Below, in pieces: positions 11,356 to 11,661 of a stretch of DNA of 64,000 bases. The number at the start of each line of letters is the position of its first letter. The stretch's first letter is position 1. This stretch comes from Isoperla grammatica (taxonomy: Eukaryota; Arthropoda; Insecta; Plecoptera; Perlodidae): NCBI GenBank assembly GCA_945910005.1, contig OX246749.1, positions 27,956,260-28,020,259 on the forward strand, in the 5' to 3' direction. The translations under genes and the position numbers were made by a program. The notes under the pieces were generated by a model. That model saw only the letters and a program-made list of their open reading frames with translations, searched no databases and had not been told where the DNA came from.

Positions 11356-11565
11356 TGTGTGTGTGTGATGCAGGCATGGATCCAGAGGCGAGGAGAGTAG
11401 TGTGGGACCTTCTGCTGACAATGAGAGGGGAGAGAACCATCATTATCACGACCCACTACATGTGTGTGTGTGATGCAGGTATGGATCCAGAGGCGAGGAG
11501 AGTAGTGTGGGACCTTCTGCTGACAATGAGAGGGGAGAGAACCATCATTATCACGACCCACTATA
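11356..11565 (+). repeat. exact-period 105-bp tandem duplication across an exon start
   Basis: Copy 1 is 11356-11460 and copy 2 is 11461-11565. Each holds the TG-rich acceptor region ending GATGCAG plus the first coding bases of the ABCA exon. They differ at two places: GGCATGG versus GGTATGG after the acceptor, and ACTACA versus ACTATA at the end. The 105-base period keeps the reading frame (35 codons). Both acceptors could be used, so the exon has two possible starts, 11374 and 11479. Confidence 0.93.
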
Positions 11566-11661
11566 TGGAAGAAGCTGATGCTCTAGGAGACAAAATAGCC
11601 ATCATGGACCACGGGAAGGTTGCCTGCTATGGTAGTGCGCTTTTCCTCAAGAACAAGTATG
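11479..11661 (+). CDS. ABCA-type transporter, exon b: D-loop and H-loop of NBD1
   Basis: From the second acceptor the exon encodes GMDPEARR (D-loop region after Walker B), TIIITTHYMEEAD (H-loop His) and DKIAIMDHGKVACYGS, then FLKNKYG: the normal ABCA order with no gap. The donor is GTAAGA at 11662. Phase is 1 in and 1 out. If the first acceptor (11373) is used instead, the exon is 11374-11661 and 35 residues are added: a second D-loop and H-loop copy joined by HYMCVCDAG. I annotate the second acceptor because it restores the family spacing. The first intron's repeats lie directly upstream; the 19.5-kb transposon stack begins about 130 bases downstream. Which start is used cannot be told from DNA. 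Confidence 0.9.

What the first reader, a model, noticed from the sequence alone, without database searches (positions are those of the whole stretch)
11356..11661. Duplicated splice acceptor and H-loop segment in an ABC transporter exon
A 105-bp tandem duplication (11356-11460, 11461-11565) copies an intron end, its GATGCAG acceptor and the first coding part of the exon that carries the D-loop and H-loop of NBD1. It is in frame (35 codons). Use of the second acceptor gives a normal cassette; use of the first would give a protein with two D-loop/H-loop segments in tandem. Two differences between copies argue against a plain assembly echo. A gene that can choose between a normal and a doubled ATPase segment would be unusual.
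Basis: partly seen in the sequence, partly recalled or inferred. Interest (0 to 1): 0.75.

Follow-up and report, generated by a model that had tools for sequence, protein, structure and literature searches.

The report
Small duplication spanning an intron-exon border
A 105-letter stretch at the start of one exon of an animal lipid-transporter-type gene appears twice in a row, splice signal included, so the cell could read it once or twice; this is a known kind of small duplication, and nothing yet shows that the doubled version is made or useful.

Summary
Window 11355-11459 and 11460-11564 are a 105-nt tandem duplication with two differences. It lies on the 5' border of an exon for the D-loop and H-loop of the first ATPase domain of an ABCA3-like transporter. 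Only 19 nt of intron were copied. The acceptors (11373|11374, 11478|11479) are identical from -19 to +1, and both give open, in-frame proteins, one normal and one with 35 extra residues. By simple motifs, a branch-site candidate at normal distance precedes acceptor 1 only; this is weak evidence. A scanning model would then favour the doubled product, which should damage the ATPase fold. None of 341 D-loop/H-loop spacings measured in 240 listed relatives is doubled. The two differences are synonymous C/T changes and do not exclude an assembly artefact, because two alleles placed side by side would look the same. The closest known case found is the potato RdRp duplication, which also crosses an intron-exon border and yields a new intron (PMC4974935). 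I read this as an ordinary recent duplication, or an assembly error, with possible but unproven alternative splicing.

The parts
5214..5397 (+). Exon a of the ABCA3-like gene: signature LSGGQ and Walker B (VILDEPTSG); ends TCAG|GTATAA in phase 1
   Evidence: (ABC_tran, E 1.2e-11)
6709..11327 (.). Element with perfect 35-bp terminal inverted repeats in the a/b intron; holds a 62-bp minisatellite of about 55 copies (6706-10095) and ends 46 nt upstream of acceptor 1
11338..11342 (+). Candidate branch site CTCAT, A at 11341, 32 nt before acceptor 1 (inference from motif)
11355..11459 (+). Copy 1 of the 105-nt tandem duplication: 19 nt of intron end (acceptor CAG at 11373) plus 86 nt of exon
11460..11564 (+). 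Copy 2 of the duplication: acceptor CAG at 11478; CAG|GTATGG also reads as a donor-like site
11479..11661 (+). Exon b, normal form (from acceptor 2): D-loop, H-loop and the end of NBD1; donor ATG|GTAAGA
11374..11661 (+). Exon b, long form (from acceptor 1): open frame with 35 extra residues, doubled D-loop/H-loop segment
32696..33108 (+). Exon c: R1 regulatory domain and start of the second transmembrane half
   Evidence: (R1_ABCA1, E 2.1e-6, 28.1 bits, cut-off 27)
39005..39406 (+). Exon d (probable): second extracellular/transmembrane part; no Pfam match on its own; end placed by eye at GTG|GTGAGG
   Evidence: (no match)
40761..41031 (+). Exon e: second transmembrane domain
   Evidence: (ABC2_membrane_3, below cut-off, E 3e-4)
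58988..59113 (+). Exon f (probable): continuation of the second transmembrane domain

Best explanation
This is a recent 105-nt tandem duplication, joined at a 3-nt ATG microhomology, that happens to cross the 3' end of an intron and the 5' part of the next exon in an ABCA3-like gene. It creates two 3' splice sites with the same last 19 intronic nucleotides. Shown: the two copies, the two acceptors and both open frames. Inferred: splicing to acceptor 2 gives the ordinary NBD1, and splicing to acceptor 1 gives a 35-residue insertion directly after the H-loop, which most likely spoils that ATPase site. By the scanning rule acceptor 1 should be strong, because the branch-site candidate CTCAT lies 32 nt before it, while acceptor 2 would need a branch site inside former coding sequence. 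The likely result is a partly or wholly harmful variant, or noisy alternative 3' splice-site use, and not a regulated switch.
For: 103 of 105 positions identical, period 105. Junction shares ATG only. Copy 2 and the rest of the exon align gap-free to ABCA1 NBD1 (two alignments shown); ABCA3, ABCA4 and ABCA7 chains match over the same query residues. Exons a-b-c join in frame with either acceptor. Acceptor 1 has an AG-free zone of 39 nt with CTCAT at 32 nt and GCGTAAT at 18 nt; acceptor 2 has an AG-free zone of 42 nt with no YTNAY and only a motif 5 nt from the AG. [quoted passage not shown] The neighbourhood is rich in tandem repeats and transposons, so local duplications are expected. 0 of 341 measured D-to-H spacings are doubled.
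Against: Both differences are synonymous, which fits weakly with both copies being coding and under selection, but two sites are far too few to tell. The branch-motif contrast is weak: of the window's 5 other acceptors, d has no YTNAY in the searched zone and e has one only at 54 nt. CTGAC (A at 11418, 60 nt before acceptor 2) exists, with four GAGs after it. Pyrimidine content does not favour acceptor 1 (0.41 against 0.47 over -3 to -20; 0.54 for both over -3 to -40). No reads, so an assembly artefact is not excluded.
Confidence: 0.58

Rival explanations
1. Assembly artefact: two alleles of the same 105 nt were laid side by side (false heterotype duplication), and the animal has one copy.
For: Two C/T differences in 105 nt (1.9%) are in the range of allelic differences of diverse invertebrates (recalled). 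The stretch is flanked by a long minisatellite and by transposons that trouble assemblers. The process, including false exon gains, is described in PMC9516828 (passages). The doubled product was not seen among 240 listed relatives.
Against: The unit is short and ungapped, with a clean 3-nt microhomology junction, as real small duplications have. PMC9516828 lists gaps between duplicates as a hallmark of false ones; there is no N in 9000-14000. The nearest minisatellite and TIR element do not enter the repeat.
Confidence: 0.3
2. A functional alternative 3' splice-site pair: the gene makes a normal and a doubled NBD1 in a regulated ratio.
For: Both acceptors share the same last 19 nt and both frames are open. 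The sequence changes between copies are silent.
Against: A 35-residue insertion after the H-loop has no parallel in 341 measured D-to-H spacings. The upstream motifs are unequal. A third of all duplications keep the frame, so being in frame is weak evidence.
Confidence: 0.07
3. Intron gain in progress: after splicing to acceptor 1 the rebuilt junction CCTCAG|GCATGG acts as a donor and is spliced again to acceptor 2, so the 105 nt behave as a new intron behind a zero-length exon (recursive splicing).
For: The rebuilt junction is CCTCAG|GCATGG. Of three in-frame candidate donors before acceptor 2 it is the only one with a good score (4.6, against 5.1 and 4.6 for the donors of exons b and c) and a plausible intron length; the other two score -1.9 and -3.8 and would leave 15 and 9 nt. 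A border-crossing duplication gave a new intron in potato RdRp (PMC4974935, Results section read). Recursive splice exons with donors at their 5' ends are known in Drosophila (PMC8605326, abstract).
Against: Copy 1 has GC, not GT; my matrix, recalled from memory, does not score these two bases and so does not punish GC. The best-scoring candidate in copy 1 is another one, GAG|GCGAGG (6.1), out of frame. GT donors in the exonic part of copy 1 are out of frame and score -3.9 to -1.6, though the real donor of exon e scores only -1.4. Copy 2 has GT but no third acceptor close behind.
Confidence: 0.05

Closest known systems
Tandem genomic duplication across an intron-exon border in potato RdRp (PGSC0003DMG402000361; PMC4974935)
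   Same: The duplicated segment contains an intron end, its acceptor and the start of the exon; two near-identical copies in tandem in a coding gene.
   Different: The potato duplication carried the branch site and pyrimidine tract along, uses a GTAAG donor recruited from the upstream exon and makes a new intron supported by 106 RNA-seq reads. Here only 19 nt of intron were copied, the exonic part of the upstream copy has no in-frame GT donor, and there are no RNA data.
Alternative 3' splice sites (A3SS)
   Same: Two competing acceptors for one exon, in frame.
   Different: Use of either site is not shown; the two sites are copies 105 nt apart.
False heterotype duplication / false exon gain in assemblies (PMC9516828)
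   Same: Adjacent near-identical copies that differ at a few sites.
   Different: No gap between the copies; unit only 105 nt; read depth unknown.
ABCA3/ABCA1-type transporters
   Same: Signature, Walker B, D-loop, H-loop, R1 domain in the usual order.
   Different: The optional doubling of the D-loop/H-loop segment.
FLT3/KIT internal tandem duplications (recalled, not tested)
   Same: In-frame small tandem duplication in a coding exon; some reach into intron (recalled).
   Different: Somatic and selected in tumours; no relation by descent.

Membership tests
ABCA3-like transporter | ABC ATPase motifs with ABCA-type relatives | tested here: met
   ABC_tran on exon a (none on exon b alone); best PDB matches of exon b are ABCA1, ABCA3, ABCA4, ABCA7; ABCA3-named relatives at about 26-45% identity
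ABCA3-like transporter | R1 regulatory domain after the NBD | tested here: met
   R1_ABCA1 on exon c, 28.1 bits against a cut-off of 27
ABCA3-like transporter | Full length with two TMD-NBD halves | not testable with these tools
   The window holds only the end of NBD1 to part of TMD2
Intron gain by border-crossing tandem duplication | Duplication containing intron end, acceptor and exon start | tested here: met
Intron gain by border-crossing tandem duplication | Usable in-frame GT donor between the two acceptors | tested here: not met
   In-frame GTs would leave only 15 or 9 nt; GTs in the exonic part of copy 1 are out of frame; the one in-frame candidate of plausible length is a GC donor
Intron gain by border-crossing tandem duplication | New intron removed from mRNA | not testable with these tools
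   No RNA data
Alternative 3' splice-site pair | Two acceptors with intact AG and signals, both in frame | tested here: inconclusive
   AGs identical and both in frame; YTNAY at normal distance for acceptor 1 only, but also lacking for 2 of 5 other acceptors
Alternative 3' splice-site pair | Both used in RNA | not testable with these tools
   No RNA data
False heterotype duplication | Half read depth or single-copy k-mers | not testable with these tools
   No reads; search of the window's own assembly unanswered in 7 of 7 tries
False heterotype duplication | Gap between copies | tested here: not met
   Contiguous sequence without N; absence of a gap does not exclude it

The most novel reading that the evidence does not exclude
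The duplication has placed two acceptor-donor junctions (CAG|GCATGG and CAG|GTATGG) exactly one repeat unit apart. The transcript can then keep the 105 nt, giving a doubled ATPase segment, or splice again through the rebuilt junction and lose them. The single C/T difference at donor position +2 would set the balance. This would be an infant recursively spliced intron caught at birth, with a regulated doubled-NBD isoform as its by-product.
Probability: 0.05. Interest if true: 0.65.

Novelty: new member of a known kind. Interest (0 to 1): 0.27.

Why it matters
If the duplication is real it is a fresh natural example of how a small duplication across a splice border makes a second splice site, the raw material for alternative splicing or a new intron. 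It would also let one ask directly whether an ABC ATPase tolerates a second D-loop/H-loop segment. If it is an assembly artefact it is a warning about gene models in repeat-rich genomes.

Tried and rejected
Organism and close relatives: three protein searches listed no close relative. The ABCA hits listed reach at most 45% identity and 44%; in both calls only the candidates sharing most words were scored and only the best 120 were listed. The best hit to the LINE ORF is 77%, an unnamed JGI record. The species stays unknown beyond 'an animal, probably an invertebrate' (inference). So neither the ancestral base at the two variable sites nor the age of the duplication could be fixed.

A doubled segment as an old feature of the family: no support, 0 of 341 spacings. 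The 240 proteins are the best 120 listed of 4133 and of 2763. In them 11 proteins had no recognisable D-loop motif and 13 D-loops had no matching H-loop motif; the patterns are mine. A second check in the same script, for a second H-loop motif within 60 residues, also found none.

A standard new intron with a GT donor: rejected, out of frame, too short or poor.

A known RNA element: Rfam gave 0 matches in the window at gathering threshold. Structure prediction of the doubled NBD1 was not attempted: the joined exons are not one contiguous window reading frame, and the tool's description limits it to window, fetched-locus and found-protein sequences. Paper searches on duplicated acceptors, internal duplications and intron creation were seen as listings only (15 of 52, 10 of 53 and 12 of 17 papers listed); by title and abstract start none looked closer than the potato case.

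Full report
What is there. The window contains a 105-nt tandem duplication, 11355-11459 and 11460-11564, with 103 of 105 positions identical. The differences are C/T at 11375/11480 and C/T at 11459/11564; in the exon's frame both are silent (Gly and Tyr codons). The repeated unit holds the last 19 nt of an intron (ATGTGTGTGTGTGATGCAG) and the first 86 nt of an exon.

The gene. The exon belongs to an ABCA3-like transporter gene on the + strand whose recognised exons run from 5.2 to 59.1 kb. Exon a (5214-5397) carries the signature and Walker B and matches ABC_tran at E 1.2e-11. Exon c (32696-33108) matches the R1_ABCA1 domain at 28.1 bits against a cut-off of 27. Exon b by itself, in either form, had no Pfam ABC match, but in a search of solved structures its best matches were ABCA1, ABCA3, ABCA4 and ABCA7, and copy 2 plus the rest of the exon aligned without gaps to ABCA1 NBD1 in the two alignments shown. 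Exon e resembles an ABC-2 membrane domain below the curated cut-off. Exons d and f were placed by reading frame and splice motifs only (d had no Pfam match). The listed relatives are animal and other eukaryotic ABCA proteins, with many unnamed metagenome records, at about 26-45% identity; no close relative was listed and the organism remains unidentified.

Consequences of the duplication. Acceptor 1 is at 11373|11374 and acceptor 2 at 11478|11479. Exons a, b and c join in frame with either. Acceptor 2 gives the usual ...EPTSG-MDPEARR...TTHY-MEEAD... order. Acceptor 1 gives ...TTHY-MCVCDAG-MDPEARR...TTHY-MEEAD..., 35 residues longer, the seven-residue linker coming from the 19 nt of former intron end plus two exon bases. 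That the frame is kept is weak evidence of function, as a third of duplications keep it. In 240 relatives (the best 120 listed of 4133 and of 2763), 341 D-loop-to-H-loop spacings could be measured; all were 29-36 residues and none was doubled, and no second H-loop motif lay within 60 residues of the first (13 further D-loop motifs had no matching H-loop motif and 11 proteins had no D-loop motif by my patterns).

Which acceptor would be used. The two acceptors are identical from -19 to +1, so the choice depends on what lies further upstream and on the exon. Acceptor 1 keeps its native surroundings: an AG-free zone of 39 nt with the branch-like motif CTCAT 32 nt upstream and GCGTAAT at 18 nt. 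Acceptor 2 has former coding sequence upstream: an AG-free zone of 42 nt without a YTNAY motif; the nearest one, CTGAC, is 60 nt away and followed by four GAGs. As a control, of the window's five other acceptors d has no YTNAY in the searched zone (it has TCGTAAC at 25 nt) and e has one only at 54 nt, so the absence of the motif is weak evidence. The pyrimidine content over -3 to -40 is the same (0.54 for both), and over -3 to -20 both are poorer (0.41 and 0.47) than the five others (0.59-0.82). [quoted passage not shown] If it holds here, acceptor 1, and therefore the doubled protein, should be favoured. That is an uneasy prediction for a conserved ATPase fold. It suggests a harmful allele, a hidden branch site for acceptor 2, or that the duplication is not in the animal. 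This paragraph beyond the counts is inference.

Is it an assembly artefact? They are not: false heterotype duplications place two differing alleles side by side, and false exon gains within genes are documented (PMC9516828, passages). Against an artefact are the clean 3-nt microhomology junction and the absence of any gap. Read depth would decide. The search of the window's own assembly did not complete seven times of seven, so a single-copy allele elsewhere in the assembly could not be looked for. I give the artefact 0.3.

Surroundings. The a/b intron contains an element with perfect 35-bp terminal inverted repeats (6709-11327), possibly with a TA target duplication, carrying a 62-bp minisatellite of about 55 copies. 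It ends 46 nt upstream of acceptor 1 and outside the repeat. The next intron holds nested retroelements (one search kept only self-matches of 250 nt or more outside the listed satellites). A genome so rich in tandem repeats makes a small tandem duplication unsurprising.

Comparison with what is known. The closest case that I found is the potato RdRp gene, where a tandem duplication crossing an intron-exon border supplied the acceptor, branch site and pyrimidine tract, and a cryptic GTAAG supplied the donor, of a new intron supported by 106 RNA-seq reads (PMC4974935; abstract and Results section read). The present duplication has the same layout, but carries only 19 nt of intron and no in-frame GT donor in its upstream exonic part. 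The one in-frame candidate of plausible length is a GC donor at the very start (score 4.6); an out-of-frame GC candidate scores higher (6.1), and the recalled matrix does not score the GT/GC bases at all. It therefore fails one defining feature of intron gain, though it could still work that way through a GC donor or a recursive step. The rebuilt junction CCTCAG|GCATGG is the basis of my most novel reading, at 0.05. Recursive splice exons with donors at their 5' ends are known (PMC8605326, abstract only).

Verdict. The interpretation as a gene choosing between a normal and a doubled ATPase segment is possible but unsupported. The thing is a new instance of a known kind of event: a small tandem duplication across a splice border that creates a duplicate 3' splice site, or an assembly error that looks like one. 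Interest 0.27.

Noticed in passing
window 6709-11327: Element with perfect 35-bp terminal inverted repeats containing a 62-bp x 55 minisatellite; the minisatellite unit begins like the terminal repeat. A minisatellite grown inside a TIR element is worth a look for its copy mechanism.
   Followed up: partly
window 11790-12229 and 30891-31330: Direct repeats of 440 nt, 98.6% identical, flanking about 19 kb; a GGCGCC-type primer-binding-like stretch beside the second copy suggests an LTR element on the minus strand with other elements nested inside (the primer-site reading is recalled).
   Followed up: partly
window 14300-15301 and 18245-19246: 1002-nt direct repeats, 99.8% identical, around an ORF (15382-16698) with a sub-threshold Retrotrans_gag match (E 5.5e-4): a young, short LTR element.
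   Followed up: partly
window 19245-22698, minus strand, and 24002-28799, plus strand: Two LINE-type elements with reverse transcriptase; Pfam finds endonuclease domains on the first and RNase H on the second, whose best listed relative is 77% identical in an unnamed JGI record.
   Followed up: partly
window 1-2724, 34304-37045, 62109-63415, 63677-64000: Several long minisatellites (98, 63, 42 and 19 nt units) in one 64-kb window.
   Followed up: no
window 10380-10735 and 61127-61468: Inverted copies of a dispersed repeat, 84% identical.
   Followed up: no
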